A DNA stretch of 64,000 bases from Sinohyriopsis cumingii (Eukaryota; Mollusca; Bivalvia; Unionida; Unionidae). A program made the position numbers and the translations under genes. Each line of letters begins with the position of its first letter. Positions within the stretch are counted from its first letter, which is position 1. Of this stretch, positions 34,093-64,000 are shown in pieces. The stretch spans positions 52,445,574 to 52,509,573 of the forward strand of contig CM068842.1 in assembly GCA_028554795.2 (NCBI GenBank), given 5' to 3'. The notes beneath the pieces are model-generated. The model was given only the letters and a program-made list of their open reading frames with translations, searched no databases and was not told where the DNA came from.

Positions 34093-34132
<40 letters not shown>

Positions 34133-34632: not shown

Positions 34633-34646
34633 TTTCAGTCACTCGA

Positions 34647-44505: not shown

Positions 44506-44721
44506 ACACATTTTGAGATCAACTTGAACACTGTTACTAAGTTCTGATCCAATTGAGGTCAGCCACTTGTAACCCTGTTCCCATTTTTCCCCAGTATCCA
44601 ATACTGTAATGTCACTTATAGTAATTTTCCACTGACCCCTTAGTGGCCTTCCCATGTTAATTTCTTATCAGACCCTATACATTTTGCTGCCATTTTCTCT
44701 ATATAAAACCGTAAAACTTCT
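44506..44721 (-). repeat. Dispersed repeat DR1 (minus copy, unit 2)
   Basis: Duplicate of 27,585-27,800. The associated 67-codon minus frame lies at 44,640-44,843. Confidence 0.8.
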
Positions 44722-45900
44722 GAGAGCATACAAGCACCTTTAGCATTGCTGATTAAAGCTGCCCCACCCACTGCTGACAAGTCAACCAACTTCTTGGAAC
44801 ATGTACTATACATTTCATGTGAATAATTTTCATCTTTCATCAACCAAGATTTGTAATGCTCTACTGCTCATGTCAAACTCTATCTTGGAATTCTGAAAGC
44901 TAATTGGATTGGCAATCGTCTCAAGTGAATCAAATGGTGTTGACAATACTTTGTGCACATTTTTAGTTAGTCTCGTGACATCCTTTGATTGAAAGATATG
45001 TTACAATAAACATTTTTAAAAAAAATAGTATTTGAAGAAATTGTTTGTTGAATTTTATTTCAGTACTCAAATATATGAATGGAAAACATACATAAATATT
45101 TAATAAATGTCTCTTTGCAAATTCAAATTAAAACATGATGGTATATGATGTAACATGATAATCAGGTCATGACCTCATTGTGGATCTATATTTAGCTCAT
45201 GTGCTATACATTATATAGTGACTTGTAATATCTACCAGCGGCACTTAAATGGACTGCCATTTTTCTTCTTTTTATTACCGTTATGAGACTGAACTTCTGC
45301 TATTAAAGTTTAAGTACTATCAAGTACTTTTGATTGAACAAAATTTTCATTTTCAGGCATTTTCAAGCCTTGACACTGCCATAGTAAAATTCAAACACTT
45401 TCAATATTTTCAAGGATCTGTATCAACCTTGTGGTAGGTGAACCCAGTCCCATCCAATATCCCCACTTAGGATCGACTAGAGTCCAAGGGGTGGGTGGGT
45501 TGTCTGCTGCTTAATGAGACAAGTGGGATAATGAACTCAATAACTAGAGGCAGAAACCAGCAGCCCGAGCAGAGAAGGGTAACTGACCTAACCTTCTGCT
45601 GTCTTGTGAAATCCTGGTCCCAGGAAAATGACTGTACGAGCTCCAGGCCAATCACAGAGTGCAGGAGCAACAGAAAATCTGGATGAGAGGAAGTCTCAGA
45701 AAGTCGACTGGGGAGAATCTTCGTGATGGGTACTGAACCTTGTGTTTGGAATGTATTCAGCACCTAATTCTATTTGAGTCGTCAATATCTATGGTTATCC
45801 TCCACGAGAATAACAGTTCATATTTTATCTGTATTACATTATACCACATTATTTATATTAGTCATTTTTGCAGAATACTTTTTCTTGTTTCAGTCTCAGT

Positions 45901-46181
45901 AACATTTACCTTTGACCTATTGACCCAAAAGTGATAGGCTCCTCTTTGTCTCAAATGCAGGACATCCACAAAGAGTGGTCATAGATCTTTCTTATCTTAA
46001 ATGCAAGCAATTAACACATTCTGGTCTAGGTATCTGATGTACAAGTCAAGTTACTGTGTTGAAATAGTTTCCCTGCATTAGTCCCTATGACCTTTGACCT
46101 CTGAGCTTCAAATCCCTTGGATTCTTTCTTGCCTGAAATGCAATCTACTAACAAAAGGCTGGATATGGTAGATGGTGGTGA
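45901..46181 (+). repeat. Dispersed 'TTTGACCT' repeat, copy 2
   Basis: Duplicate of 28,980-29,260. Confidence 0.55.
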
Positions 46182-47852
46182 ACTTCTTCCTGATCACTAT
46201 GGCACTACCCAGGGACATAACCCTGGGGCAACAGCAGGTTAGCAAGAAAGAGAAGTGTATTATTCAGCTATCAAGTAACTCAGTGAGGGGTTAAAAATTT
46301 AATACTGGAAAAAAATAATAACCTAAAATTGTCTCCTAATTCCATATCCCTATTTTGTGTCTAACCCAAGGGACAGAAGCAGTAAAGGAAAAAAAGGGAA
46401 GTTTGGGAATATAAAATATTGCAAATTTATAGTGAACTGGATAAAAAGTTTAATAAAACAAGAGTGGAATAAAAAAATGCACACCCAGATCTACACTTAC
46501 ATATTGTGTTCGTTGATCATGGTGTTTCCTTTCTGTTCAAACTTATATGCTGATTAAAAAGATGAGCCAGTATGTCTAAACACGATACAACTGCAGACTG
46601 TAGTTGGATGCAAATAAAAGCAATTTTCAAGATCAGGCCTGGAGATCATAAAACCCATGACTTAGGTTTGACAATTTGTCTGAATCATCAATCACAAAGG
46701 ATGTTACTTTGGTAAGCTAGTTTAAAACTGGCTGATATTAGACACCCAATCTCAGACTCAGGTTCCAAGTTTTCTAATCACAAGACCAGGTCTCATATTC
46801 AAGTAATTCCACAATGATTGTTATACTGTTACATAATTTCACTCAATATTTAACTACATTCATCAACTAAATAAATTGCAATTTTCCAATTTTTCATACA
46901 CAAATTACTTTGTTCATTTTTATATATAAAAGATCGAGACTAGGTGAGTACTCCTGTTAAGGACATTTGTGAATCATGGGTAGTCTTATTTAAGAAACAT
47001 TCCTGAAATTTCTCCTTAAACTGAGTATATGTACTATCTGTGTCAACAAGTATAGATAAAAACAAAAGCTAAAACTTGTTAGCTGTTTGAAAGTGTGCTC
47101 ATTTATGCTGATGGGAAGAGGTTAAAATTCATCAATTTGTGGGATATCCCTATGGATAAATTAAACACTTTCCCAGAAACAAACAAAAAATATTGATCAA
47201 AGGACTTAATGTACAGGTTTTCAAACTTTTTTGTGTGGAAATTCTTGATTGCAATAAGACAGGCACAGCAAGAACATTTTAACAAATTCAAAAAAATCAA
47301 TTTAATTAATTTTTAGATGTTTAGTGAAATCTGAGAAAGAATAATACTGGTATTTATCTATTGGACAATCAACTGCTTAAGTGATTCCTGGAATAAGTAC
47401 ACGACAACAGTTATCCCAAATGGTCCACAAACCTTTTGTTATCTGAATCAACAATGTTTAAATACCATTAAAAGGCAGTATGCAAAACAATGATTAAACA
47501 AAATATTTGTTTAAGTATTAAAAAAAGAGTCATTCCCAACAAAGATTCAATACAGACAAAAGAAATTCATATTTATGTTTTGATTCTGATATAAACTTTT
47601 ACTTCTTGATAAAAATGGAATAATCTGTTTTGGGTTAAAGCAACTCTACTTAATGTCATTCATTTTTATATCAATACCTTTGTTCCTTTAAGATCTCCCC
47701 TACAGAAGATAATTACATCATGGGATTGTGCATAATTTTGCCATGTATCCGGTGACACTGTATTTTTCAGTTACAAAAATAAAAAAAATTTAATATTTAG
47801 ATGGAAGACTTTTTTCTTGCAATGAACATGTTCAGACTGGTATAATTGTCTT
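46182..47852. other. AT-rich non-coding region of unit 2
   Basis: Duplicate of 29,261-30,931. No gene recognised. Confidence 0.4.
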
Positions 47853-48146
47853 TCAATCTGAGAACCAGTCACTCCATTCCCAATCTTCAGATCGATATAC
47901 TCTCCAAATATAGAAACAATTCACCATAATTATTTGCAAAATTCGTCCAAGAACAATATCTTGTGGCCAGATTTGATCCAATGCAGCACTCCACCATGAT
48001 GGTTCCGCAGCCAGACTGCTACATTGGTTAAACAAACGTATTGTCGATTGTGTTACCATGAATATGATAGCAAATTTTACAATCAGTGGAGATCGCCATG
48101 GTAACACTATAGGGGCTGCATCTTCTTCTTCTAACGACTTTTCTGA
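47853..48146 (-). CDS. Candidate 3'-terminal coding exon of a membrane protein gene, copy 2
   Basis: Identical duplicate of the exon at 30,932-31,225, with the same polypyrimidine tract and acceptor. If the duplication is real and the parent gene lies on the minus strand, its upstream exons would be expected to the right of each unit or within it. Whether this copy or the first is spliced to them cannot be told here. Confidence 0.5.
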   Translation of the reverse strand, partial: SEKSLEEEDAAPIVLPWRSPLIVKFAIIFMVTQSTIRLFNQCSSLAAEPSWWSAALDQIWPQDIVLGRILQIIMVNCFYIWRVYRSEDWEWSDWFSD

Positions 48147-48368
48147 CTGGAAAAAAAAAAGATATCGAATTAGAAAATTGCTGATTTCTATTATTATAAC
48201 ATAAAAGCACGTAAAATCAACAGATACTGATATTGTATCCTTGATGTTAACCCACCTTTTATATACTGCATTTATATCTCGTGTAACAATGATATGTTCC
48301 TTATGCTTGGTAGTGAGAAAAGAGTAAGATATCCTGAACGAGACATGACTTTGATAGAGGAAGGATGT

Positions 48369-48561
48369 GAAAACATTGGGTGTGTGTGTGGGTGTGTGGG
48401 GGGTTAATGGCACTTTCAACACATTATTGGCTATTTCATGCCAAAGTATCTTTCCCAAAGACGCAGGCAGCAAACCCTGGCTGGCCTGCAAGGGCTCTGA
48501 ACCCACAACATGTGGATGAGTCGGATGCTCATACAACTGAACTACCACAGTTCCCTATTCG
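48369..48561 (-). mobile_element. tRNA-derived SINE, family C (minus strand, copy 2)
   Basis: Duplicate of 31,448-31,640. Confidence 0.7.
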
Positions 48562-48762
48562 AGGCAGAAAAGTCTTACACATGGTCATTTGCAGCTGATT
48601 TGAAGCATCTTTTTTTTGTGATCTTTGCTGTACTCAAACATTAGAATTCACAGACTGCTTCAGTACAGGTTTTCTTTCTTTTTTTCTTTTACAAAACAAT
48701 TTTTGGTTTGCAAATTATATATTTATTTTGTAATTCAACGAGTAAGAATAACATTCATATAT

Positions 48763-48865
48763 CATAGTGTGCCAAGTTCAAATGCTTGATAAATCCATAA
48801 TGATCTGGATACTGGGATTTTATTTCCTTCATGTTCTGGCAAACATTTGAACTTGGCACACTATG
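48763..48865 (+). repeat. Perfect 22-bp inverted repeat with 59-nt loop, copy 2
   Basis: Duplicate of 31,842-31,944. Arms are at 48,763-48,784 and 48,844-48,865. Confidence 0.95.
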
Positions 48866-48970
48866 CTTCACCTAACAGGTTTAATAATTATATCCTGGAA
48901 CTAAGGTATGAGTATGAGTGTTGGAATGTTTTTTTTATAAAAAAATTCAGTCATATCGCTACAATGTTTC

Positions 48971-49126
48971 CAGTGTGACAGTTTATAGTGATGTCTAGCT
49001 CTTAATGCTGAGCGCCAAGTGAGGCAGCTTAAGTACCATTTTTTTAAGTCTTTGGTATGACTTGGCCGGGGTTTGAACCTGCAACCTCCCGCATCTGCAG
49101 CAGAGGTATGAAAACTTGAGCTACTA
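48971..49126 (-). mobile_element. tRNA-derived SINE, family A (minus strand, copy 2)
   Basis: Duplicate of 32,050-32,205. Confidence 0.82.
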
Positions 49127-49160
49127 GTGACAGGTACATTGCGAAGGGCCTGCTCACTGC

Positions 49161-50581
49161 AATTTGCTTGTCATGATCTGTAATAGAGGGACTTGGACAT
49201 ACTGAGATACCACAAATAGAGAATGGATAATCAGGGGATATTAATCCTCTGAAAGATGATCTGCAAAGCTGGAAAATCAACTCATTCAACAAATATTGTG
49301 ATGCATAATAAATCTGGTTGAAATCTCTAATTAAAAGTTATGCTGCAGAAACCAAAGTTAAGAGAGACAGGCAATCAGGGGCCATAACTCTTCTAACACG
49401 GGAAATAAAATTCATTTAAGGTGTCATCAGCAAATGCATGCAAAATTCAACTGAGATCCAACAAATCCATAGTAAAGATGGCGCTCTAAAGTTTCATATT
49501 TTCCGTAGGGTTAGGATTTTAAAGAAAAAGAATTTCCCCAGCTTTCCTTACTGGTTATACTGGCTATTTAAAAAAGACCTTTTATATCTTAGGCATAATT
49601 AAAAGAACCTTTAATTCACTTTATTTTGGTGTATGATGGACGGGTGTAATATGGGTTATAGAGTATACAGCTTGGCCTTACTTCAAATGTGCTCCTTTCA
49701 AAAAAGTGCAAGCTCTACTTGGTCATTTTCACTTCCTGAACTTAAGAGGTAAATTGTATAAAAAGAGCTGATAACTTTTTTTTACATTTTATATATTTGG
49801 TAATTCATTCATTGCACTTTCAGAAGCTGGTATTGTCTAATCTGGCAAAATTCATTTTCCCTATTTTAATAGCTGCTATGTATAGTGTACTTTAGACTAA
49901 TTCAGACTGATTTTTTAACACAAGGGAGCAGTTATTTTAATTAGCAATGTGCTTAAATCATGTAAAATTTCCAAAAGTACAATATCCAAAGAAATATCAT
50001 CTACATTACATTACTGTAGCATATAGGTATGCCAACATTCTCTCCACTGTGCATGTTTTAAATGCAAACTACTTCACCTTACATACGTCACTCTCTCTAA
50101 AGTACATATTAATTGGTGAGCACCCCCAAAGTAAAACTGCAGAAACTAAAATCAACAGGGCAGGCAATCAGGGGGCATAACCCTTGTAAATGATATTGTG
50201 GATTGCTGAAAATCCAACAAACCTTTGTGACGTTTTGCTGCATAAAGCAATGTAAGAAGGACATATATATCAGGCAACATAACACTGTAAATCCTTGAAA
50301 ATGAACTCATTCAACATCTGATGAATATAAAGCCAGGTACCAAACATAGTTGAAATCAAACAAACCTTAGTAAAGTTTTGTTGAAAAAACCCAAGTCAAG
50401 TGCACAGGCAATCTGGGAGTATAACTCTTGAACTTGACAACACAGATGTAAATGAAACCATTTAGAGGTCTCATCAATATAAAACTGCATACAGAATTTC
50501 ATTGAAATCCACAATCTTGCTAAAATTATGCTGCAGAAAAGAAGTATGGGTAATCCTGTAGATATGTCTTGGAACATTGGA
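49161..50581 (+). repeat. Degenerate dispersed/tandem repeat array DR3, copy 2
   Basis: Duplicate of 32,240-33,660. Confidence 0.7.
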
Positions 50582-50840
50582 AATCAAACTCAAGGTCTCA
50601 ATAAATAAAAAAAAACAATCTTAATTCAGTTAATATTTAACAAACGTGGATAAAGATATGCAGTGGAAACCAGCAGCAAGAGATGGGCAAACACCCCCCA
50701 AAATGTGGTATCGATATTAGGGGAGGGATACCCCCATCACGAAGTGCCGTTTTTGCAATCCTGTCCTAACAAAAATGTAAGACAGTCAAGGACAAAAATG
50801 AGATGAATTACCATCAGCCAAAAAGGATACATTTTGTAGT

Positions 50841-50932
50841 TGGGGCTTAAAAAGATGTGGAATTTTTTCTTACCAAAGGCCATTTAGAGGCTTGTATATA
50901 AGCCTGGTTGGAGCACACAAAAAAGCAAAAGG

Positions 50933-50963
<31 letters not shown>

Positions 50964-51013
50964 TAATAATAATGATAATAATAATAATAATAATAATAAT
51001 GATAATAATAATG

Positions 51014-51053
<40 letters not shown>

Positions 51054-51553
51054 TAATAATAATGATAATAATAATAATAATAATAATAATGATAATAATA
51101 ATGAGGACTTTGTATAGACAACACCTGTATGATAAAAAACATATAATGATATGATTACAAAAACAAACACCATGAAATTAGAAAACATTAACAAAACATG
51201 CTGAGAATATTTAAGGTAGGAAACATTATTAGGTCTTTAAGTTTGTTCTTGCAGTCGAAATAAGTGAGTTTTGAGAGCCCTCTTGAATGGGATCATGACT
51301 ACACCCAAGTCAGTGATGTTTTATATGCTATTTCACTGGTAATTATTAAGTTTGCAAGTTGAACTTTTTCATGTGCATGAACATACCCACTGGCGAATCA
51401 GTGTGAAAAAAACTTTTCGAGATTCAGAAGCTGTTCAATCTGAATTTTAATTTGTAATCAAGCACTGCCCCAACAAGTCAATTCTGGGTGCTAAAACAAA
51501 CACCCTTAATGGGTACGAGGGGGGGCCCAGGCAAGTGCACCCATTTAACACCT
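50841..51553 (+). repeat. Dispersed repeat DR2, copy 2
   Basis: Duplicate of 33,920-34,632, including the trinucleotide array at 50,932-51,104 with the same length and the same pattern of interruptions. Confidence 0.88.
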
Positions 51554-51567
51554 TTTCAGTCACTCGA

Positions 51568-51800
51568 GGGGGCCCCAAGTGGCCGAGAGGTCTAAGCACT
51601 CTCCGTTATGGATCACTGCCATCTCACCTCTGTCTGTGTGGGTTTGAGTGTAGGATTCCGCTAATGTGGGTATGTGAGAAAGCTTACCTGTAGCTTCTTG
51701 TGGGTCAGTGGTTCTTCCTGGGGTTTTCCTGGATTTTACTTCACCATTAATACTGGCTGCCATTGTATGCTAAAAAATGGCGTTAAACCCCACAACAACA
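51568..51800 (+). mobile_element. tRNA-derived SINE, family B (full-length copy)
   Basis: The head is 'gggggccccaagtggccgag' with an A-box-like 'gtggccgagaggtct' and a B-box-like 'gggtttgagtgta' (near 51,640-51,652). The body has 'gtgagaaagcttacctgtag' and 'gtcagtggttcttcctgggg', and it ends near 'gcgttaaaccccacaacaac'. It crosses the right edge of the duplicated unit (51,608-51,611) without interruption. Confidence 0.9.
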
Positions 51801-51849
51801 ACATCAGTCACTTGAGAACCACTACAGGCAATTAAGAAATATTTTCATC

Positions 51850-53060
51850 ATGTGATTGTGTCAAACAGCAGCTATAATGATGTCAGGAAGCTCACGTGGA
51901 ATTTACAGAAGGTACAGAGCAGTTATTTTAACCAAATGTCGAACCAACCCAAAAAAATTGTCACAGCAACTGAGGCAACACAAAATACTCTTGAGACATT
52001 ACTTGATGATATTGCTGGCCTTCTTCAACCACCACATGAAGTACAACCACCATCACGAGGTAAAACCAACACAATAAATTTACTGAGGAGGGTATTGCTG
52101 CTATTAGCGAAAAAGACCAAATATTTTATATGCTGGGACTGAATACAACAATAAAATAAAATTATGTAAAACCTGAATATGTTGTCACTCTAATCAGATC
52201 AAAGGAAGAAAAAAAGAAAACTTAAATCTTTAACCGAGCGGTAGATGAACTTAGTGCAAAAGAAGAACAAAAAACTGAAGAAATGGATTGTCAACTTGAA
52301 AAAATAGAAGAAAGCAGAAAATCAGGTGTAAAAACTAGATCTGAATTAAGAAAGGAACAGGAAAAGCTGCATAGAAAGCACCTCTGATTGCACTCTCCTG
52401 AACCACAACCAGATCCGCAAGATGGATCATCTGAAGAAACAACTGGAAGTGGCTTTGCCACTCACGATGTGCAAACACAATGATATCGTAAAAAAGAAAC
52501 CTCCCTCATGATTTATGATAAACTTTGTCCCAATAATGTCATCACTGATGTTGATAGATTCTGACTGGTGGAAGATGAGCCAGTAATAATTCCCATTAAA
52601 TCATCAATGAGGCAGTTGCTATTTGTCACCATTTAATTAGTGGTGATATCATGGATAGCAGCATTGGTTGGGCACTAATCTATGAAATTACCGATGATTA
52701 TTTCAGTGGTTGATCAATTAGATTGGTGATAACAAAATAACATGATTATACACAATGCCCAGCATGGTCCTGAAAATGTCAGGGTGATAAATTCATGATT
52801 ACCGGTTTATAAAGCAATCTATGGAGATGGATTCAGTGATGATATTGAATGTTTGTTCAGAAGGATAGCCCAAAAAGCTATTCTGATTAAAAAAACAATT
52901 AGAAATGAAAGACATTGAAGTTGTTCATGATACGGGTATTGGCACTGTTGGTGATGTCGCCGGTAAGTATTTTCAGCGGTCAAATTCAGACTCGCACGAA
53001 AAGTACAAAGAAAACCACAGCCAGTAAAACTGCCCAGCACCTATGTGATGCCAGAAAATA
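51850..53060 (+). pseudogene. Polinton/adintovirus-like structural-protein relic 1
   Basis: Coding-like plus-strand sequence is broken by many stops and frameshifts. It contains a Glu/Lys/Gln-rich coiled-coil-like part (near 52,235-52,400), a Pro/Asp/Ser-rich linker, then a 'VEDEPVIIPIKSSMRQLL' block (near 52,565-52,620) and a basic stretch near 52,970-53,030. No enzymatic motif is seen. It lies at the head of a run of relics that includes ATPase, PLA2-like and integrase genes, so a virion-protein origin is inferred from context. The family is not certain. Confidence 0.4.
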
Positions 53061-53289
53061 TCAGTAAAATAATAAATAAAGCTGCAAATTAATGACTGAC
53101 AGAAATAGCTGGCACACCGTCAAAACAAGCCGTCACCGATATAGAACAAATATAGCCGCAAACCTAAATGTGGGTAGTGGTCAGGTATGTCGTCGCTAAT
53201 CAACCACTTACTGATCGGCATTAAAACATCATTTTAGACAACAGCGAATACAATAAAAACTGTTCAAACATGTATCTGAGCCCGCATTT

Positions 53290-54290
53290 GACATGGTCAC
53301 ACCAGTACTCAAGGACGAGTCAGTGCATGATTATCAATATTATTCTTATGAAGCATTAAAACCGAACCAACGTGGACAAATCGAACTACAAGTTCAAGAT
53401 ACATCCAGGTATTTCATGCCAGCCGAGGCATTAACTGAAGTTCAGGGTAAATTTGAAAACTATCAAACAAACAAGAATTCATAAGATATCTTTGGTACAG
53501 AGCACACCTGATATGGAGAGAGCCAAGTTGGGTCCATTGCTTACCCAGCCATCGTAAAGAAAAAAGATCAAGAGAATATACATTACGGTCAGTGTCTGAA
53601 CAGTGTGTTTCTGATAGAATAATTATCGCAGAAATAGCGAAGGATAAAAAAATACACATATAGATCTGAGAAGGCTTTTTGAGAAATATATACCTGAATA
53701 TCCATATGACGATCTTATACAAAAATTCATTGTGACAGGCGAGGTCCGATGTTGATAAAAACCTCTGATAGGATCAGTAATTTGCCATGGAGCGAGGTTT
53801 AGAATAGATGATGTAGCATTCAAAAAACATTTCTTTTTACTTATTAAGATCACGATGACCAACTTCCTGTTTTGAACATCAATAAAATGCGGCAGTATCT
53901 CAATGGTATAACTGATGAATATTTTTCCAAAAATCTCTGCTGCATGGGGCAAAATAAGAGGCCCTCCAGATATTATCTGGCATAACGATCCAACAGGTGG
54001 TAGTCGTCATGTAACGCCGGGTATAGTTAATATCACGTTGATGATTTCTGTAAATTTCGTATATGACGCAGTTGATGGTAGTTATACTGCATCTGGAATA
54101 CAGATGGGGCAGGACTAGCAGGCATATGTTCTTTACAGCTTTTCTCTGGAGATCCCACCGGGCTATTTGACTGTGTCAGTGCCTGTTAATCCTGTTTATT
54201 TACCATGTCATAATCCGTCATTGTCACAAATACGTTTTCGTCTAACTGACCAGGATGGTAATGTATTGGACATGTGTGGTAAGAATTAAT
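53290..54290 (+). pseudogene. Polinton/adintovirus-like structural-protein relic 2 (capsid-like)
   Basis: An open frame of 63 codons (53,293-53,484) begins 'MVTPVLKDESVHDYQYYSYE' and includes a 'YFMPAEALTEVQGKF' block. Further fragments follow in other frames, ending with 'RFRLTDQDGNVLDMCG' (near 54,232-54,280). The order, with an early 'aromatic-rich, P..a.leveG' block and a final 'LTDQdG' block, resembles a conserved capsid-associated protein common in invertebrate Polinton-like elements. Which capsid component it is, I cannot say. Many breaks make it non-functional. Confidence 0.45.
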
Positions 54291-54429
54291 TGTTAGTTTG
54301 TATATGTGTGAAAGATCATGACAACCCACCATAAACCACCACCCCACCCCCCCGAAAAAAATAGTGCACTCCGCAGAAAAAAATAACATAACATTTTTTT
54401 TGTGTGTGTGGATACTGGTGACATTTATA

Positions 54430-54775
54430 TTCCACCTTGGAATTCTTAGTAGATTACAACACAAGGATTTTAGCTGTCTCACACGTGCACTTACTCTTCT
54501 CAATGGCACTTGCCAGTGGAACACATTTAGCTATATCGCGTTCTTCGTTGACTAAACCCGCCAAGGACAACTAAATCTCTTCCTGGAGTAATTTGATATC
54601 ACAATATTCTTCCGCTGGTGTATATCTACCCTCTTCCTGTCTCTGCTGTATCATATCAAAATCATTGTCGATTTTTTTCAACATCAATTTGAACTGCTCA
54701 ACCATCTTGTTGTAATTTTTCAATCAAAGAAATAATGGTGTTAATATTTTCTTGGTTCATTTTACAGTAAATGTA
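54430..54775 (-). pseudogene. Small coding-like relic downstream of the ATPase
   Basis: On the minus strand a start near 54,760 opens a short run ('MNQENINTIISLIEKLQQDG'), followed by broken frames with an acidic, helical character ending near 54,430. It lies just downstream of the ATPase relic on the same strand. No domain was recognised. Confidence 0.3.
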
Positions 54776-54779
54776 TTTC

Positions 54780-55400
54780 TTTATTAAAAGATTTTATCGA
54801 GAACAATTCGATAACGTGTTGCTGGATCATGTAAACTTATTGTGATGAATCCATGCAGGTTTTTTTTCAAACATGGTGAAGAGAGTTCCTAAACTTATTT
54901 ACGTCCATGTCGCAGGGGCACTAAGTCGGATGAATATTGCAATGTATGTGTGTCAACACCATTAGAAATAAGCACAAACAAATAATACAGTTATCTCTGA
55001 TCACTTTGGGGATTTGAGTGTACTGCTGTGTAATGTAAATAACATGTTTTTATGTCTGCCTTGTGAAAATATTCTGGCTGGATTTGTTTATTTGTCAAGC
55101 ATGACATCATCGTAAACCATAAGATTATCCCCCACTCCCTTACGATCTTCGATGGACGGTGCATCAATGATGTCATTGATCAATTCAAAAACATTATTAT
55201 CATCATAGTCATCCTTTACACTTTCATTAAATTCCTTAAGAACATTAATTGCATCGTTGGCCATCTACGCATTGTGCCACTGAATAAAGTTTATTCCATT
55301 TGAGCCGCCTCAGTAACAGGTTGAGTAACAACTTAGCTTTACAGACCCAAATGGACCAATTATAATGACTCAAATATAATTTGGTAACACTGGATGATGC
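54780..55400 (-). pseudogene. FtsK/HerA-type genome-packaging ATPase relic (A32-like)
   Basis: On the minus strand a damaged P-loop-like 'GPFGSVK' lies at 55,337-55,358. It is followed by an open segment from 55,264 with an acidic helical stretch. Next is a Walker B-like 'LMVYDDVMLD' (complement of 55,094-55,123), then a 'SQGRHKN' block and, after a frameshift, 'YITQQYTQIPKVIRDN', which matches the sensor region of packaging ATPases. In Polintons, adintoviruses and other large DNA viruses this enzyme pumps genomic DNA into the capsid. It has a stop after Walker B and at least one frameshift, and the P-loop has lost a conserved Gly. It is transcribed opposite to its plus-strand neighbours, which flank it on both sides. 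Confidence 0.65.
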
Positions 55401-55904
55401 TTGACTGGTACTTACTTGCATGTCGCTGAAAAGTCAATCATGCTCATATTGTACAAATACAGTATTATTTATGATCATGAATTTATATTGTGCTCAATGC
55501 AAGACAGTCATGGATACAACTGGGTAAAATGCAACTACAAAAAATTTCAGGCGAGCACTTACAGTTTAGTGTATAAAATGAAGCATGCCAAATATAAGTT
55601 TGTACTGGGTGACATGGTGACTGGCAGTGATATTGCTGCGATACTCAGGAAATTACCAGGAAAGCAATGGGCTAAATACCCAGGGAAAAAACATCTTCCT
55701 GGATATAATTATTATGGTCCTGGAACCCGATTTGATATAAGACTTGACAAACAAAATCAACCTAACCCAGGTGAATTTCCAGTAAATGCGATTGACCAAG
55801 CATGCCATACTCATGACATCATGTATAAAAGCAGGGCTATGCAACAACGACATATCGAAGACGTCAGTTGGGTTGATTCACATGTTAAGGTTGATAAAAA
55901 CTAA
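55401..55904 (+). CDS. Phospholipase A2-like (parvovirus-VP1/Polinton type) protein, open frame
   Basis: A 167-codon plus-strand frame. Residues 98-142 hold the PLA2-like core: 'HLPGYNYYGPGT', matching the calcium-binding loop, and 'ACHTHDIMY', giving the catalytic HDxxY (H138, D139, Y142). In viral capsids such domains help breach the endosomal membrane, and stand-alone versions are frequent in Polinton/adintovirus-like elements. The first 60 residues have no counterpart and overlap the ATPase relic region on the other strand, so the true start is probably a later ATG (M60 or M72). The C-terminus is cut at residue 167, where a stop follows 'HVKVDKN', and a short helical tail expected in the family seems truncated. 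The core is strikingly intact compared with its neighbours, but activity cannot be inferred. Confidence 0.75.
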   Translation: MTGTYLHVAEKSIMLILYKYSIIYDHEFILCSMQDSHGYNWVKCNYKKFQASTYSLVYKMKHAKYKFVLGDMVTGSDIAAILRKLPGKQWAKYPGKKHLPGYNYYGPGTRFDIRLDKQNQPNPGEFPVNAIDQACHTHDIMYKSRAMQQRHIEDVSWVDSHVKVDKN

Positions 55905-55989
55905 AAATATAAGAGAATCACTCACGAACTGGTTGATAAGATCGTCCAAGAGTGGTAAGTTAGCCGTCACACTGGCAATTAATTTCCAG

Positions 55990-57000
55990 ATAATCATAAT
56001 AATGGAGTCAATTTATTATAGTCCACCAGGATATTTAAAGGGTACAGCAGCGATTAGTAAACTCACGGATTCAGCAGCTGTCACATATGCTGTTGTCGAA
56101 GATTGGTTGTCATGACAGGGCAATATGGCAAATTTATATGTGATGTCCCAAAACGATTCAGCATGGACGGACTGATGTCAGCACACCCAATGAAGTTCAT
56201 CAGGCAGATATACTGTTTTTACAATAGATGACATTGGCACATCATGTAAACGGCGCACATACAAATACGTGTTGACGGTCGTAGACGTTGCAAGTAGATA
56301 CAAAGAAGCGGAACCGCTATCAACTAAAACAGCAACTGAACTAGCAGCCTTGCTTGAACGAATTTATTCCTGTGTTGGCCTGCAATGGCCACAGTTGCTA
56401 CAGGTTGATCCTTGCAAACAATTTCTCAGTGTAGTAACATCGCTGATGTAACAACATAACATTAAAATCAGTTGTGGACACACCGCATCACATTGTGATC
56501 AGGCAATCATGGAATGATTTAATCAAAAACTTGCTGAGAGATTGTTTGGATATCAGTAAGCCCAAGAATTACTGACCAAGGGCAGATCTTGTGAATGGGT
56601 TGCGAAACTATCTCATGTGATAACTGCATTAAACAATGAAGTCACACGTGAAATTGTTATGAAGCCAATCTATGCAATCGTGGAGAAACACATCCCGCGC
56701 TGGTGCGACTCAGCCATGAGCCACTCACAGCATGCAGTGCTGGGCAGCAACGTGACAGTCAGGTATTTAAATGAACCTGGTGAACTTGAGGGTGGTAAAG
56801 CACGAGCAACCGATGTCGTCTGGAGAGTAACCACACATAAAATTCGCAAGTGGTAAGATCTACTAGAAGGAATGCAATCTACAGACTAGATTAAATAGCT
56901 CCTCAATATGGATTTGTCCATCAACAATTACAAGTAATTCCTGAAAATACACTATTACCACAGGTTGGATTCGTGCCAGAAAAAGAAGCTAGCACTCCTA
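55990..57000 (+). pseudogene. Polinton-type retroviral-like integrase (rve) relic
   Basis: Plus-strand pieces lie in order. An N-terminal block is at 56,010-56,115 (in the frame 55,786-56,115, with 'YYSPPGYLKGTAAI'). The catalytic core has 'LTVVDVASRYKEAE' (first Asp, in 56,269-56,451) and 'LLQVDPCKQF' (second Asp), with the third acidic residue at 56,511-56,513 in an 'AIME' block directly followed by a stop. An 'EWVAKLSHVITALNNEVTR' helix and a C-terminal SH3/chromo-like block 'VRYLNEPGELEGG' follow (in 56,617-56,856). Such integrases insert the double-stranded genome of Polintons/Mavericks and adintoviruses. All three catalytic acidic residues can be seen, but stops and frameshifts break the gene at four or more places. 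Confidence 0.88.
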
Positions 57001-57179
57001 CAGCTGTTACATTCAAGACATGTCAGTGTGACATTTTCGAGTGTGTGGTCATGAGCACTATTGATCATGTTAACGGTAAATCGTCATACGACATTAGGAA
57101 ATTCTGCACAACGGTATTGTGTTTCAGCAGGCGCGGTAATTATTTTGTTTCTGCTTCAGCGTCATGATAAATTCAACAT

Positions 57180-57600
57180 CATGATCAAACTGGCAGTGGT
57201 TGTTTTTTTTTTTCTTCTCGTGCATAACCTGTTAATTTTTTCTTTATGGTGCCATTTCTTGGCATGCCAGTGGTGGGTGATCCAGTTGATGGAGTGTCAC
57301 AGACAATCTTAGAATTGTCAATGACAATTCTGCGCCGGTGAAATATTTTTATAACTCTTGATACTGCCAAATATACTAAATTTGACCATTCGATCTGATC
57401 ACTAACAAGCCAGATAATGATATCTGAAATTGCTAGCCCCTGCGACGAATGAAATGTTATTGCATATCCTAGAGTCCAAAAGGATGCCTGCAACTTTGTT
57501 GCCGCTAGAGCCTGCTCAACAACCTATGTGGGAACTTCAATGCTATCATTAAGACTGAGCCTTTGTTGTGTATCCATTCCTGGAATCATGACTGTAATAT
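57180..57600 (-). pseudogene. Superfamily 1 helicase relic, C-terminal part
   Basis: A 102-codon minus-strand frame (57,185-57,493) contains 'GYAITFHSSQGLAI' (residues 9-22), which fits SF1 motif V, and 'VYLAVSRV' (residues 40-47), which fits motif VI with its arginine finger R46. These are typical of RecD/Pif1/UvrD-like helicases. The tail is basic. Upstream coding-like sequence continues to about 57,600, where a non-coding insertion separates it from the remaining helicase motifs at 59.29-59.74 kb. Confidence 0.68.
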
Positions 57601-59289
57601 TTTGTCTATTTGTATCCACTAGATGATAACACAGTGGAACTGGCTGTGTCAGCAATTTTTCCTGTTGTAGCTCAAATAGTCTACGCTGAAGTGAATCAAG
57701 GATGTTATTTCATGATACATTACAAACTGTTAACATCGACCTCTGCTATGAGCGACCACCTATCATTTCCGACCACAATTGTAATGCACGGATCGATTTT
57801 ATTATATAAATGCTCTGTCGTGAGCAACCACCTGCTGAATGCGACCAGTGGCCATGATGTCTTGGCAAAATATGCATTCTGACACTATGAAAAACCGCAT
57901 TGCAAACACGAGGACAACTCCACCGACCTTTATTTAATCCAATGGCCACTTTTATGTGCTATAAAAATATAGACTGGATACTGGTATCTGAAATTTTGTG
58001 GGTATACTTATATTGTTTTATATTTTCTATTGTAAACCAGACTAAAGTATATGTAGATTATTCCAGCACTCAGCCTTATTTTGTGTGTGTGTGGGTGGGG
58101 GTATCATAGCTACCGCCGATATGTAGGAGTAGGACCCAGCTCTATCAACATCTGTATCATGAGAACAGAGGCAGACACCACTGACTTTTGTCTAATCATT
58201 TGTGACAACGATCGCTTCAATAGTAAAGATTGTTCTAATAAAAAAAAACATGCATAAGAAAAGGGAGTCTGCCCACTGATTTGTATATAGTGGCAGATGG
58301 CACAGTCCGTAAACCAGGCTAATGTACATGTTGCAAATTTGCCACTGTAGTGCCGAAGTTAAGGTAGTGGTCCTTTATATTGTCTTTAGAGTTACTCCAT
58401 ATTGCCCATGGGTGAATAAGATCTTAGTCTATTTAACTAGCAAGTGACAATCAAGGAGGGATTTTATCGATGACGTTAAAGGCTTGTGATATTTGTTATT
58501 TTTAATACCCCTGATGTTATAGTGATTACATCCCCAACACCAAGCTGTCATCTATTCAAGTTGGTGCTACCGCCGGTTTGCACACTTTGTTTATAGAATT
58601 AATCCCTGTATGTCTTCTTTGAATTAAGCCGTTGACTTTTTTCTCCGAGTAAATGATTCAATTTCTGGATGAGATAACTGTTTCTTTTTATTTCATTAAT
58701 TGTTAGATATGAAATGCACATGCATATATTTTTCATATTTTCCCAAAGCCTAGTCAAAACCGTTTTGACAGTCGATATTACAACTAAACACTCTTAATGT
58801 TGACACCTAGTACCTCGATAACAATGGAAGAACTTCCAGCTAAAACGAGACAACTAAAACGCTGTCGAGAATAATTATTGTAACTGAAAGAAGTGAAGAA
58901 GAGTAGACCACTCGCAAACTAGTGGTTTAAACATTGTAAACCAAATTTAGGGTGTTACAAAGGAAAAGGAGTAAATCAGAAACAATTTCATATGCTATAA
59001 CATGTACATGTGATCTTCAAATGCAAATGTAATTTCATGTTTAATGATAGAATTACATTTTCTATTGCTATATAAATATTTTCAGATGAATGCATACGCT
59101 ATTTTAGCAGGAACTATTAAGACAGAATAGAATATATGTACAGTGATTGTGGTTATTTCTTTAAATTGTTCAGAAACTGGACCTTGAAAAACTGGTCTTT
59201 GTGCACAAACCTGTTATGAGAGACCACCTGTCTTGACAGCCCGTTTTTTGTTGGCAGAAGGGGTGATCTCTCATAACAGGTTTTACTGT
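57601..59289. mobile_element. Probable insertion separating helicase pieces, with 'GACCACCT' foldback motifs
   Basis: Sequence between two parts of one minus-strand helicase lacks coding character. Phrases of the type 'ctgctatgagcgaccacct' (57,744-57,762), 'tgagcaaccacctgctg' (near 57,822) and 'ctgttatgagagaccacct' (59,211-59,229) recur, the last as an arm of a hairpin. This pattern suggests one or more non-autonomous DNA transposons (MITE-like). Exact ends were not resolved, and a genuine intron is the alternative. Confidence 0.4.
59207..59283 (+). repeat. 22-bp inverted repeat (one mismatch), 33-nt loop
   Basis: Arm 59,207-59,228 ('aaacctgttatgagag...') pairs with 59,262-59,283 ('...ctctcataacaggttt') with one mismatch. 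It lies at the right edge of the presumed insertion in the helicase relic. Confidence 0.9.
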
Positions 59290-59818
59290 ACAACTCAGAT
59301 CTTGAGGGTGTCATAAATTCCACAAATCCAGCGTGAACGTTTCTGGAATTATGCTGTGCAATATCTCACCTTGAATCTTGCCAGGATGAAGTCTAATTAA
59401 CATGTTCAGCTCACGTAATGATTCATTGTTGGATCAATGATGATGCAACATTTCCTCATAAGCGTCGATGTAGTTGTTTTAGCCAGGTGTATGGCGATTT
59501 TCCTGTAAATCGATGCAAATGATAACTACCATGTTTTTTTTAGACAGCCAATTGAGAAAGAATTTTAATTTTAATATGTCTTTTGAGACCATGCATATTT
59601 CGTTCCAAATTATGATTTTAGGAAGATATTTATCACATATCCACATGATACATGCATGAGTTAACTCCCCATTCTTTCATCTCTCTGGCAAGCCTGTGAG
59701 TTGGCGTTAATACAATCATGTTAATAAATTTATTGCATGTGCTATTTTATCAGAACCATCAGGATCATTAAGATAAACTATTTTATGTCTCGTGATTGGA
59801 TCATTCACTGATGCACTC
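59290..59818 (-). pseudogene. Superfamily 1 helicase relic, motor domain 1 part
   Basis: On the minus strand 'INMIVLTPTHRL' (complement of about 59,694-59,736) corresponds to motif Ia. 'PKIIIWNEICMV' (near 59,588-59,622) corresponds to motif II (Walker B), with Asp of the DE pair replaced by Asn. A faint motif I candidate ('DPDGSDKIAHAI', near 59,740-59,780) has lost its glycines. Several stops are present. It continues on the far side of the SINE at 59,819-59,905 and matches the C-terminal piece at 57.2-57.6 kb in strand and order. Confidence 0.6.
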
Positions 59819-59905
59819 GGGGCCCCATGTGGCCGAGTGACCTAAAGCGCTTTCAGTTCTAGATCACTGCCATCTCATCTCTTCTGCGTGGGTTCAATTA
59901 CATAT
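59819..59905 (+). mobile_element. tRNA-derived SINE, family B (short copy inside the helicase relic)
   Basis: It comprises the head 'ggggccccatgtggccgag', an A-box-like segment, 'agatcactgccatctcatctc' and 'gcgtgggttcaatta' as a degenerate B box. Only the tRNA-like part is present. It is inserted in opposite orientation to the coding relic around it. Confidence 0.85.
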
Positions 59906-61630
59906 TTGTTCACGCTTTATTCTCCAATGACCCCAACGTGTTGACTAAGCCAACATTATCATCTTTAATGTCATCGCAGTCGATAAATGGTTTCACATGA
60001 TCTATTTTTGATCGACTTGTGCAAAAAGAATTCGTGGCTACTCTAACAGCGTTCTTTGGAAATCTGTTAATCATCGATAACAGGTTTATTGACAAATATG
60101 CATCAAAGATCTCAAATGAGTAAACTACGGTGAATCACCATCATGGTAGCTAACGAATGTGCCAATATTTGTACCGTCGTGCAAATTTGCACTTGGCTGT
60201 GACATCAATACAACGTATTTGCGATCACAAAATCTAGTTCTGCCGGGTCCATATGTAATCTTGTACAGTGGCATTTACTATTAGATTATGCAAAAGATGT
60301 AAACTTACCAATACTTTTTCTGCACATATCTTTATCATCTCGCGGTAGCCAAACTGTCTTTGCTGGCCTATATGATATTATCGCAGACATTACAGTTAAC
60401 TATGTGAGAATCTTCGCATCAAGCATATACCGTAATAGCACTATTGGAGCCTAACCACGGTGATATTTTCCACAGCAATCATTGAAATTAATGTTGGTAT
60501 CTAGTTTATTAAAATGACCACCAAACCAGACATGTTTAACCAGATGAGTATTTGTTGAAAACACAAACGATTCAATCTCGGAAAATCGAGTCAGATCGTA
60601 GTTGACAGGCAGTAGACCGTTTATTGCTACTTTGGTCATTTCATGTGTTGGATGACCAAATCGTGAAATATACTGTTTACAATCGCCATATCCAAGAAAA
60701 CTAGCAGGATATAAAGTAACATTATCAACAGAGATTATGTCGGATGGATTATAGTTTGTGTTTCTGAAACCGTCAGGTCCAAGCTCAAAATAAAATCGTG
60801 ATATATCATAGAGAAATTCTATTGGATTAGGACGCCATACATTTTTTGTTGTGCTATATATGCAACAACAGATGTGATTGTAAAACAGTTATTGAGTAAT
60901 TCATCTAGGTTTGTACATCATTGTGATATTTTACCGCAATTTGTTTCATTGCAAGTTGGAGTGATTCTTTCCAATAAAATTTACCCAATGGTAGTACGAA
61001 CTGATCAAATAATTCACCATCAGCATCATCAGCTAATCCATCACTGTGAAATAGCCAGAACCATTGAGAGTCATTGTTACTAATATTATAAATCTCCTAA
61101 AAATACCACTGTGATAAAATCTAGTTGTTTTTTCTAGTGGAAATGTTGTTACTGCTTCAGTCCATGCATAAGCATTATGATCCACTATCATTATTGGACA
61201 GCCTCGTGTTAATATTTGTTGAAAACATTGTTAGTTTTTTTTTTACTACTATCAGAAACGTCAATGTTTTTTCCAACACTGGGATGTCATTTATGCTAGC
61301 ACCATTGATAACACTATTGGCCCATTCAGTTATATTTTTTATTTCTGATTCTGTTAGTCTATTTCCTAGTTTATTATTCATAAAATGTTCTGTTACCCTG
61401 TAAGCCACACAATTTAACACATCATTTCTCATTGGGGTAAAGGCATTGATATCAGGATCATTTAAACAGTCGAGTGCATAAACAACAGCAGATACTGGAT
61501 ACACATGCGTATAGTATGGCTGGTCAATACGTGTCATTGTACCTGGTTTAGAATTTTTTCCACCGTGACAATGCTGTTGTGTCATCATGATTCTTTGACA
61601 GGGCCAAATGTATCCCAGATAATCCATATT
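59906..61630 (-). pseudogene. Large coding-like relic, probable N-terminal region of the helicase protein
   Basis: The minus strand is coding-like across this span in changing frames. It includes an open frame of 150 codons (61,175-61,627) and another of 62 codons (60,451-60,639) containing 'NGLLPVNYDLTRFSEIESF' and 'HVWFGGHFN'. The region is continuous in strand and composition with the helicase motif pieces to the left, so it may be the N-terminal (possibly primase or origin-binding) region of one large replication protein. I do not recognise a catalytic motif in it, so only the 'helicase-linked' status is inferred. Confidence 0.45.
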
Positions 61631-62107
61631 TGTCTATTTTGGCTCCAATGTTCAACAATAAACTTTATCCTGAACAGAAATCATTTTTCATCTGCAAGAT
61701 TATTAATAACAGTCGCTGGAAGATTGTCATTTAATGAAAATACCATCGTGATCCATTTGTAATGTTGATCAAACATTGAGCAGCACCATCACAGAGGAAC
61801 TCGTATTTTGGCCATTCTGATATAATCATGTAATTGTAATTCAAATGGAGGACATTTTTTCTTATCTGTTAATCTACTGAAATCAATTCTGGTGGTGTAT
61901 ACTGGTCCAGTAATTGCTAATCTTTTTTTTCTCTTGTTCAAAAAACATATTTGATTTTATCTCAGGTTCAATTGCAACCTATCTCTCAAATTCCTTTGAT
62001 GTTTCTAACGTTTGAATCTGATTTTCTACATTTTCATGTGCAATTTTTTTACCTTGGGAACTCTGGTTTTATCCCAATGAGATTATAATACCGTTGAAGC
62101 AATTGTT
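61631..62107. other. Spacer between divergent relics
   Basis: It lies between the start of the minus-strand helicase relic and the plus-strand zinc-ribbon relic, so it may hold decayed divergent promoters. AT-rich; no motif seen. Confidence 0.35.
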
Positions 62108-62431
62108 TTGCTACAGTCCACACTTGCTCATTATATAATTAAGGCAAGTTTTTCTCTGATTGAACATTATCCTGGAATATTATATAAAATGTCACGAGCA
62201 AACAATAGTTATCAGTGTCTTATGATGGGGTCAACAACCCACTGTGAAAAACCTTGCTGTGATGAGTATTTCTCTAATCATCTAGTGAGTGACAGGCAAG
62301 GTAGTTCTGTACCAAAATCATGCGTGAAATGTGGAAAGGGGGTGAGGGGAAAAACTGAACCTTGTATTTCTTGTGGTGGCAGAAAATATAGAGCATTACA
62401 GCGATATTATGAATTACAAAAATCTTTCTGA
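62108..62431 (+). CDS. Small zinc-ribbon-like protein, open frame
   Basis: A 107-codon plus-strand frame; the ATG at 62,189 ('MSRANNSYQCLMM') is the likelier start. It has two CxxC pairs, 'SCVKCGKG' and 'PCISCGGR', spaced by about 12 residues in a basic setting, giving a zinc-ribbon-like unit. An additional 'CEKPCCDEY' cluster lies upstream. The frame shifts at about 62,410 into a Lys-rich helical segment (62,373-62,657 frame), so the original protein was longer. The HNH block follows 350 bp downstream on the same strand and may be part of the same gene. Confidence 0.5.
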   Translation: MLQSTLAHYIIKASFSLIEHYPGILYKMSRANNSYQCLMMGSTTHCEKPCCDEYFSNHLVSDRQGSSVPKSCVKCGKGVRGKTEPCISCGGRKYRALQRYYELQKSF

Positions 62432-62639
62432 TGATATTAAAATAAAAGACACCAAGGATTATCTTAGTAAAATTTCCCTGAAAAATAAATTACTACTAAA
62501 GGAAAATAAATTTATATACAAATGGAGCAAGTTAACAATGATATTATTAATGTTGATGAGTTTAAACAACATCAGGTGTTCACTAACAACGAGGCTAACA
62601 GAGCTGGTGTTATCAATAAATGTCATATTTAAAAAAAAC

Positions 62640-62890
62640 TCTCAACATTATCACTAACATGGGTTACCTTAGGATCGCTATTGGAATTCCTGGCAGTGAA
62701 AAAATAAATAAAAAGATATCTTTCATACAGATTTGTTCATGAGCATTTTAATGGCATTATGAATGACGGTCTTGTTATTGACCATATTAATTCCGTTAGA
62801 ACAGATAATCATGTAGAAAACCTGCAAGCCATCTCACAAAGAGAGAATGCAAATGAGGAAAATCCAGCAAAAACAAAAATAATGTCCAGT
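62640..62890 (+). pseudogene. HNH endonuclease relic (HNH_3 type)
   Basis: On the plus strand 'GYLRIAIGIPGSEK' (62,659-62,700) is followed, after a frameshift, by 'FVHEHFNGIMNDG', 'VIDHIN' (DHIN codons at 62,780-62,791) and 'NHVENLQAISQRENAN'. This is the classical order of HNH nucleases of phage, giant-virus and homing-endonuclease type. The central Asp-His and the later Asn are present. A stop follows near 62,890. The upstream half of the protein is broken. These nucleases cut double-stranded DNA; in an invertebrate genome their presence usually signals viral or selfish DNA. Confidence 0.72.
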
Positions 62891-63639
62891 TAGTATAAAT
62901 CTAGATAAGGGAGAGAGAATAAATGGACTTTTTGTCATCATCAGTTGCCAGAATATATTTGGATATAGAGTCGAAATCAGTTTATTACGTAGCAAATGGT
63001 ATTACTAATTCAGCAACTTCACAGCGTTATAATTAAAAAATACAATTTCAGTATATACAGTAATGTAACATATTTTTTTACCCACAGCCGACTATCTGAA
63101 AAAGCTGAACATCTCACTCATAACATAGATGTCCCCAGTCATGTGTTGACCTGTGCTAAAAATAACACTGCTAACATTAGAATGCCTAGTGACGCTTTGA
63201 CCTGCAAACAATAACACACAATTCCCATTCCATTGCATTAATATGCCCATGCTCAAGGTAAATGAATATCAGTTATACATGTCACAACTGGTGTAATCTG
63301 TATTAAAAAAACGGGGATAATAATATAAGAAATTATAAATTCTATAAGTGCGCAGTTACTGATAATTTCTTTGTAAGCTTGTGCATACTGATAAATTCTC
63401 TGCAATCTGTTGTGAACAGCACTGCTAGTATAGTTTATGTATTTATTTCAGCTGTATATTTGTAAGTAGAGCCCATTGGTTAGCACAGATGGACACTCTT
63501 TATCTCAATCATGTTGTGGAAACTTCCTTCAGGTTAAAGTCTCAGCACAAGGGATACATAATATTTGTTGGCATTAGTAAAAAAAAAATTATAAGCCAGG
63601 GTGTGGCCACAAGCAACTGAAAAGATATTAAATGGGTAA
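62891..63639. other. AT-rich spacer, nothing recognised
   Basis: A 72-codon plus frame at 62,996-63,214 has no motif, although two similar phrases ('...DVPSHVLTC' and '...MPSDALTC') occur in it. It may be the decayed end of the virus-like block. Confidence 0.35.
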
Positions 63640-64000
63640 TTTGTAAAACTTGACCCGGGTGCACTTGCCTGGGCCCCCCTCAAACCCAGTATGGGTGTTA
63701 GTTTTTTAGCACCCAGGGTTCACAAGGGTGTGTGTGTGTGCTTCAATAAAAATTAAAATTTAGCCTGGACTACACTCTGAATCTCTAAAATTTTGTTTTG
63801 TACCAGGCAATTTGCTAGGGGGTGTGTTCACCCACATGACAAAACTCAACTTGCAAACTTAAATAGCATATGAAACATCACTCAATTAAGTGTGGTCATC
63901 TCCTTTTGCTGTTTTTTGTTGTTGCTCCAACCAGGTTTATATACAAGCCTCTGATTGGCCTTTGGTAACAAATAAACTGACATATCTTTTTAGACCTCAT
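63640..64000 (-). repeat. Dispersed repeat DR2 (minus copy, cut by window end)
   Basis: It is the reverse complement of the repeat at 33,920-34,632, with the same block order but without the long trinucleotide array. At the equivalent site there is only 'gcaaaaggagatga'. A short (GT)n run lies at 63,729-63,741. Confidence 0.88.

What the first reader, a model, noticed from the sequence alone, without database searches (positions are those of the whole stretch)
51850..63250. Fossil virus-like block combining Polinton-type genes with an SF1 helicase and an HNH nuclease
Within about 11.4 kb lie capsid-like relics, a packaging-ATPase-like relic, a PLA2-like ORF and an rve integrase, followed by pieces of an SF1 helicase and a zinc-ribbon/HNH module. 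The first set is typical of Polinton/adintovirus elements; the second set is more typical of larger DNA viruses. Either this is one element with an unusual gene set (replacing or adding to polymerase B, which is not seen here), or two elements lie side by side.
Basis: partly seen in the sequence, partly recalled or inferred. Interest (0 to 1): 0.8.

Follow-up and report, generated by a model that had tools for sequence, protein, structure and literature searches.

The report
Fossil integrating virus with helicase replicase
A decayed virus-like DNA element of about 13 kb lies in a eukaryotic genome, apparently a single element that carried a retrovirus-type integrase and probably copied itself with a polymerase-helicase resembling that of the Tetrahymena Tlr1 element instead of the usual Polinton polymerase.

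Summary
The block is real and looks like ONE decayed element. Profile support: PLA2-like and HNH clearly; rve integrase and SF1 helicase C-terminus below curated cut-offs. The 'capsid-like' ORF belongs to a conserved family (3 relatives, 60-70% identical) but capsid identity was not shown. No packaging ATPase was found. The 'missing polymerase' has a likely answer: the minus-strand gene (57188-61633) has SF1 helicase motifs and, upstream, a conserved stretch with a polymerase-B-like motif A. That is the order of the 'Tlr1-like helicase' (polymerase palm plus SF1 helicase), which replaces PolB in the Tlr1 element and some Polinton-like viruses. So the 'unusual' gene set fits a described combination, here as a fossil in a genome that looks animal (host not identified). 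The palm rests on one motif; a preset four-motif test failed at motif C. Target duplications, other copies and host were not testable: the window stops at the right terminus and the genome search did not complete. A separate PolB-like relic lies outside the repeats.

The parts
50848..51560 (+). left terminal inverted repeat (carries a later AAT/GAT-type microsatellite and extra sequence)
   Evidence: 82.6% over 92 nt and 71.7% over 258 nt to the right repeat, inverted; gapped local alignment score 267 versus at most 72.8 in 100 base shuffles of the right end
63616..63992 (-). right terminal inverted repeat; the outer end is cut by the window end
   Evidence: apart from a SINE, the only similarity of 51616-64000 to the rest of the window better than E 1e-10 (low-complexity filter on)
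51569..51803 (+). SINE-like repeat inserted at the inner edge of the left repeat, flanked by TCAGTCACT[C/T]GAG (12 of 13 bases match); a later insertion, not a gene of the element
   Evidence: similar to 14506-14698 (78%) and 59819-59894 (83%); flanks printed; tRNA-like head and orientation are my reading, ARAGORN found no tRNA
53257..53481 (+). capsid-like ORF piece: N-terminal part of a conserved protein family (capsid identity not shown)
   Evidence: relatives P0015-P0017, 60-70% identity; no meaningful Pfam match
53912..54286 (+). two further pieces in one frame with one stop between, perhaps part of the same or a second virion protein
   Evidence: reading of frames only; no Pfam match to either piece; weak
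55477..55980 (+). PLA2-like gene; many relatives have an N-terminal DUF5679 domain; broken by changes of frame
   Evidence: PF08398 E 2.7e-8; 11 of 12 candidates matched at 60-67% identity, 6 of 11 with PF18930 precomputed; tblastn pieces in different frames
56194..56853 (+). rve-type integrase relic, in pieces
   Evidence: PF00665 E 1.8e-6, below cut-off, for 56194-56448; IS481 transposase model E 1.2e-4, far below its cut-off; 56560-56853 assigned by position only, no family match of note
57188..61633 (-). replicase relic in several frames: N piece 61178-61633, palm-like piece 60454-60888, motif-C-like stretch near 60038 (by eye), helicase Ia 59667-59704, II/III-like 59482-59676 (by eye), VI 57290-57523
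59819..59894 (+). second SINE piece, lying between the palm-like and helicase parts of the replicase
   Evidence: 83% identical to 51569-51644
62081..62890 (+). zinc-ribbon-like ORF and HNH_3 nuclease piece, on the strand opposite to the replicase
   Evidence: HNH_3 E 2.5e-10 and PHROG HNH families to 7.4e-11 for 62708-62890; zinc ribbon by eye, no Pfam match

Best explanation
This is one decayed, integrated element of the Polinton supergroup, at least 13,145 bp long and bounded by terminal inverted repeats. Left-side genes on the + strand (capsid-like, PLA2-like, rve integrase) face a large minus-strand replicase, and an HNH gene lies near the right repeat. When alive it most likely inserted itself with the rve integrase acting on the inverted repeats. 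It copied its linear genome with a single polymerase-helicase of the Tlr1-like kind (polymerase-B palm followed by an SF1 helicase) in place of the usual protein-primed PolB. It probably made particles, with the PLA2 protein serving membrane passage as it does in parvoviruses (recalled). It then decayed in place and took SINE and microsatellite insertions. Shown: one repeat pair around all genes, PLA2/rve/SF1/HNH homology, decay. Inferred: palm domain, capsid role, all activities.
For: Enclosing inverted repeats and no second long pair inside (longest 32 nt at 72%, ungapped). Pfam and PHROG matches. Patterns for motifs A, Ia and VI lie in that order on the minus strand, none on the other strand of 57000-62000; in 2000 random first-order Markov sequences A occurred in 50, Ia in 0, VI in 0 (patterns written after seeing the sequence). 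The palm-like piece has 3 relatives among 7 candidates (E 1.1e-19 to 7.6e-11) that keep D and YP of motif A as invariant columns. A comparison with the window's other PolB-like piece aligns a 16-residue stretch holding motif A (E 0.04, probability 1.3%). Literature: Tlr1 has an rve integrase and, instead of PolB, a large protein with a C-terminal SF1 helicase and palm motifs, in which the first Asp of motif C is changed (PMC11071308). The gene sets are complementary: the left set lacks a replicase, the right set lacks integrase and capsid.
Against: No Tlr1-like helicase sequence could be fetched, so the palm assignment is motif-level. The script's four-motif test came out negative because the preset motif-C pattern did not match, though that pattern turned up in 479 of 2000 random sequences; the stretch read by eye as motif C (VRVATNSF) lacks both Asp residues. 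No PDB match with the palm alignment, no Pfam or PHROG match of note for the palm piece, both AlphaFold models unusable. II/III-like piece: no helicase match. No relatives confirmed in IMG/VR or GTDB contigs. No packaging ATPase. The HNH is not fused to the helicase C-terminus as in described cases. Nearly 2 kb separates the II/III-like piece from the motif VI piece. At 13.1 kb it is shorter than the 15-40 kb given for most Polintons (PMC7805220 passage). The element end and target duplication are cut off by the window end.
Confidence: 0.68

Rival explanations
1. Two elements: a Polinton-type relic (capsid-like, PLA2, integrase) into which, or beside which, a separate helicase/HNH element inserted between about 57.0 and 63.6 kb.
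For: All genes are broken, so order alone cannot prove unity; the two halves are on opposite strands; the replicase interval contains a foreign insertion (SINE piece at 59819-59894) and a hairpin (59207-59283).
Against: No inverted repeats of note flank the helicase/HNH part (ungapped search). The single long repeat pair encloses both halves. Neither half alone has both a replicase and an integrase, and the combination is the described Tlr1 set.
Confidence: 0.15
2. One element, but the replicase is a plain SF1 helicase (Pif1/RecD/Dda-like) without a polymerase domain; the upstream conserved stretch is something else and the polymerase was lost or never present.
For: Only the helicase C-terminal piece has profile support (weak PDB match E 0.66); no profile matches the palm-like piece; the preset motif-C pattern failed.
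Against: Conserved D....YP motif with three relatives, in the right order and on the same strand as the helicase motifs.
Confidence: 0.12
3. A classical Polinton/adintovirus that lost its PolB, or whose PolB is the relic at 18686-20013, with the helicase acquired from elsewhere.
For: A PolB motif-like relic (LDMCPLYP and YNDTDS, by eye) lies in the same window; rve integrases are typical of animal Polintons.
Against: That relic is outside the inverted repeats, about 14 kb from the left repeat before the duplication, with a piggyBac-type piece between.
Confidence: 0.05

Closest known systems
Tlr1 element of Tetrahymena thermophila (Polinton-like virus with Tlr1-like helicase)
   Same: rve integrase together with a large palm plus C-terminal SF1 helicase protein instead of PolB, virion-type genes (PMC11071308 and PMC4642659, passages and one section)
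   Different: There the helicase carries a C-terminal GIY-YIG nuclease (PMC12721341 passage); here an HNH is a separate gene on the other strand; PLA2-like gene here; probable animal host rather than a ciliate; packaging ATPase, present in Tlr1, not found
Polinton/Maverick and adintovirus elements of animals
   Same: rve integrase, long inverted repeats, animal-type setting
   Different: Defining PolB is not found inside the repeats; 13.1 kb is shorter than the 15-40 kb given for most Polintons (PMC7805220 passage)
Transpovirons
   Same: Tlr1-like SF1 helicase with polymerase palm (PMC11071308 section 10)
   Different: They are capsidless (PMC10328495 passage), and no rve integrase is mentioned for them in the passages seen; the present element has an rve integrase
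OmPLV of Oxyrrhis marina
   Same: SF1 helicase and PolB on one protein in an endogenised Polinton-like virus with inverted repeats of 230-860 nt
   Different: Helicase is N-terminal to PolB there, rve integrase not detected, tyrosine recombinase instead (PMC12721341 passages)

Membership tests
Tlr1-like helicase elements (Polinton-like viruses) | SF1 helicase at the C-terminal part of a large replicase | tested here: met
   VI piece (Pfam below cut-off, PHROG 6.3e-5), Ia pattern, both on one strand in order
Tlr1-like helicase elements (Polinton-like viruses) | protein-primed PolB palm upstream of the helicase on the same protein | tested here: inconclusive
   Motif A conserved in 3 relatives; preset motif-C pattern failed; no profile or structure support
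Tlr1-like helicase elements (Polinton-like viruses) | homing nuclease (HNH or GIY-YIG) at the C-terminus of the helicase in described members | tested here: not met
   HNH_3 lies at 62708-62890 on the opposite strand, beyond the N-terminal end of the replicase pieces
Tlr1 element | rve integrase | tested here: met
   PF00665 E 1.8e-6 (28.6 bits, cut-off 32.6)
[quoted passage not shown]
   Conserved family found, no meaningful Pfam match, model pLDDT 36.8
Polinton supergroup | FtsK/HerA packaging ATPase | tested here: not met
   No Walker A on the capsid side in six frames of 51400-64000; decay makes absence weak evidence
Polinton/Maverick proper | protein-primed PolB with DTDS motif inside the element | tested here: not met
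   No DTDS among the matches in six frames of 51400-64000; the PolB-like relic is outside
Polinton/Maverick proper | terminal inverted repeats | tested here: met
Polinton/Maverick proper | 6-bp target-site duplication | not testable with these tools
   Window ends 8 bases beyond the aligned right repeat; the genome search did not complete

The most novel reading that the evidence does not exclude
The element represents an unrecognised lineage of integrating DNA viruses of animals that replicate with a Tlr1-like polymerase-helicase instead of PolB, combined with an rve integrase, a PLA2 protein with a DUF5679 domain, and a free-standing HNH nuclease. In the papers and passages I saw, this replicase is described from a ciliate, algal viruses, mimivirus-associated transpovirons and metagenomes, so this would extend it to animals (a tree legend listing Hydra leaves room for an earlier animal case, PMC3671162).
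Probability: 0.35. Interest if true: 0.65.

Novelty: new variant of a known kind. Interest (0 to 1): 0.45.

Why it matters
Animal Polintons and adintoviruses are defined by PolB plus integrase. An element in an animal-type genome that keeps the integrase but swaps the replicase for a Tlr1-like polymerase-helicase would show that replication modules were exchanged within this virus supergroup in animals too. It would also warn that surveys using PolB as bait miss such elements.

Tried and rejected
Relatives were sought in IMG/VR with three single pieces and three alignments: none confirmed. Two degenerate helicase patterns in IMG/VR brought three contigs. In L001 and L002 the match lies between the listed ORFs of what look like phage contigs (by eye). 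In L003 it lies in a 421-residue ORF that reads, by eye, as a phage SF1 helicase. tblastn of the proteins then held (P0001-P0017) against L001-L003 gave nothing better than E 0.15. GTDB contigs with two alignments: none (the second scan is allowed when the first finds nothing). Phage records with PLA2 relative P0005 and with the PolB-like piece: no match. Structure prediction of the palm-like piece (mean pLDDT 32.7) and the capsid-like relatives (36.8) was too poor, so no fold search was run. PDB sequence searches: nothing for the palm alignment and the II/III piece; Csm2 at E 0.18-0.21 for the N piece, taken as chance; a helicase (entries named ATP-dependent DNA helicase or TPR domain protein) at E 0.66 for the VI piece; for the PolB-like piece 20 sequences, 19 of them repetitive designed Pizza proteins, rejected as an artefact of repeats. 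Rfam: nothing at gathering cut-offs. ARAGORN: no tRNA. I considered the HelPol polymerase (PMC11071296) and rejected it: the name is not helicase-polymerase but that of an exotic DNA polymerase. A giant-virus insertion was considered and rejected because of the single repeat pair and small size.
Full report
What is there. The 64-kb window reads as eukaryotic nuclear DNA; its host is not given. SINE-like repeats and a microsatellite, a piggyBac-type transposase piece (PF13843, E 0.0015, below cut-off) and a CCHC zinc-knuckle ORF (PF00098, E 2.9e-9) fit an animal. The SINE reminds me of molluscan SINEs, but that is recalled and no call shows it.

Boundaries. Self-comparison shows an inverted pair, 50848-50933 against 63901-63992 (82.6% over 92 nt) and 51295-51542 against 63657-63899 (71.7% over 258 nt). 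A gapped local alignment joins them into one repeat, 50848-51560 and 63616-63992, score 267 against a maximum of 72.8 in 100 base shuffles of the right end. The left copy is longer because it holds a microsatellite and extra sequence. Apart from a SINE, this is the only similarity better than E 1e-10 between 51616-64000 and the rest of the window. Inside 51600-63700 the longest inverted pair is 32 nt at 72% (ungapped, so a gapped pair could be missed). So one repeat pair encloses everything in the finding, whose interval (51850-63250) lies inside it. The window ends 8 bases beyond the aligned right end, so the true terminus and any target duplication cannot be read.

Genes on the left, + strand. 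53257-53481 belongs to a protein family with 3 relatives out of 3 candidates (E 3.0e-24 to 3.2e-19; 60-70% identity). The PLA2-like ORF is sound: PF08398 E 2.7e-8, 11 of 12 candidates matched at 60-67% identity, 6 of the 11 with a precomputed DUF5679 domain (PF18930), confirmed in the 3 I rescanned. In the window the gene is spread over 55477-55980 in more than one frame. The rve piece scores E 1.8e-6, slightly below the curated cut-off, with a far-below-cut-off match to an IS481 transposase model (E 1.2e-4). A packaging ATPase was not found.

The replicase, minus strand. The piece 57188-57523 has SF1 helicase motif VI (Pfam UvrD_C_2 E 0.011; PHROG 6.3e-5 and 3.7e-4; NCBIfam RecD2 E 0.019; the curated cut-offs are not reached). 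The motif-Ia pattern occurs once in the window with none in 100 shuffles; it was written from this very piece, so the count says only that the pattern is rare. A piece at 59482-59676 reads like motifs II and III by eye but has no profile or PDB support. Upstream, 60454-60888 has 3 relatives among 7 candidates (E 1.1e-19, 3.9e-19, 7.6e-11); D and YP in D....YP are invariant in the four rows. This is the form of motif A of family-B polymerases (recalled). A profile comparison with the PolB-like relic elsewhere in the window aligns a 16-residue stretch holding this motif, weakly (E 0.04, probability 1.3%). In a script over 57000-62000, patterns for A, Ia and VI were found in that order on this strand and none on the other; in 2000 random Markov sequences A occurred in 50, C in 479, Ia and VI in none. 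The script's full test (A, C, Ia, VI in order) came out negative because the motif-C pattern did not match; VRVATNSF stands at the right place by eye, but lacks both Asp residues. The patterns were written after seeing the sequence.

The key comparison. PMC11071308 (a passage of section 4 and all of section 10) describes Tlr1-like helicases: large proteins with a protein-primed polymerase palm and a C-terminal SF1 helicase, which stand in for PolB in Polinton-like viruses and transpovirons. The Tlr1 element combines such a helicase with an rve integrase. In these proteins the first Asp of motif C is changed, and HNH or GIY-YIG nucleases occur at the C-terminus of different members. The present block has the same combination of integrase and SF1 helicase, and the same order of palm-like motif and helicase. 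It differs in that the HNH (E 2.5e-10) is a separate gene on the + strand at 62708-62890, and in the PLA2 gene. I therefore read the block as one element that works like Tlr1. I do not file it as a proven member: the palm is inconclusive, the ATPase was not found and the nuclease is placed differently. It is not a Polinton in the strict sense, since no DTDS-type PolB was found within the repeats.

How it most likely worked. Inferred steps: the linear genome was integrated by the rve integrase acting on the inverted repeats; the polymerase-helicase copied it; virion proteins packaged it, and the PLA2 may have helped membrane passage. Shown steps: one repeat pair, the homologies named, and decay by stops, frame changes, a SINE-like repeat at 51569-51803 with a 13-base flank repeat matching at 12, another such piece at 59819-59894 and a microsatellite.

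Relatives elsewhere. All 17 database relatives sit on short contigs, the longest per protein 543 to 1685 bases, from ENA, NCBI or JGI collections; the only source name given is 'hypothetical protein'. None was confirmed in IMG/VR (6 protein or alignment scans), in GTDB contigs (2 scans), or, for one PLA2 relative, in phage records. The own genome could not be searched: 17 identical requests did not complete.

Literature. Ten paper searches listed no paper that, in the titles, abstract starts and passages I saw, describes a Tlr1-like helicase element in an animal genome. The legend of the helicase and 6F-protein trees in PMC3671162 lists Hydra among species for the two trees at once, so an animal sequence may have been included. 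Most subscription papers are not in the library, and the 2016 paper on these fusions was not held. The claim of novelty is therefore weak.

Context. Positions 17766-34686 are repeated exactly from 34687 to 51607 (16,921-bp period; the only mismatch in the 16,929-bp alignment falls in the 8-base overlap at the junction). The duplication ends at 51615, inside the SINE of the left repeat, so the left repeat also exists as an extra copy at 33927-34639. This is either a very recent tandem duplication or an assembly artefact. A PolB-like relic (LDMCPLYP in 18686-18919 and YNDTDS in 19630-20013, by eye, no Pfam match) with a BIR-like ORF beside it (PF00653 E 0.001, below cut-off) lies outside the repeats; the duplication start 17766 may fall within its gene.

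Noticed in passing
17766-34694 and 34687-51615: Exact tandem duplication of 16,921 bp with about 8 bases of shared sequence (ATGGMTCA) at the junction; one mismatch, inside that overlap. Very recent, or an assembly artefact.
   Followed up: partly
18686-20013 (+) and copy at 35607-36934: PolB-like relic with LDMCPLYP and YNDTDS motifs (by eye), outside the element; the duplication start at 17766 may lie inside this gene.
   Followed up: partly
20523-20903 (+): BIR (inhibitor of apoptosis)-like ORF, E 0.001, below cut-off, next to the PolB-like relic; possibly a gene of a second Polinton-type element.
   Followed up: partly
23024-23290 (+): piggyBac-type transposase piece (PF13843, E 0.0015, below cut-off).
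   Followed up: no
15698-16165 (-): ORF with two CCHC zinc knuckles (PF00098, E 2.9e-9), gag-like, left of the PolB-like relic.
   Followed up: no
57524-59481: Nearly 2 kb between the II/III-like and VI helicase pieces, longer than I would expect for the domain, with a 22-nt 95% hairpin at 59207-59283; probably further insertions into the replicase.
   Followed up: no
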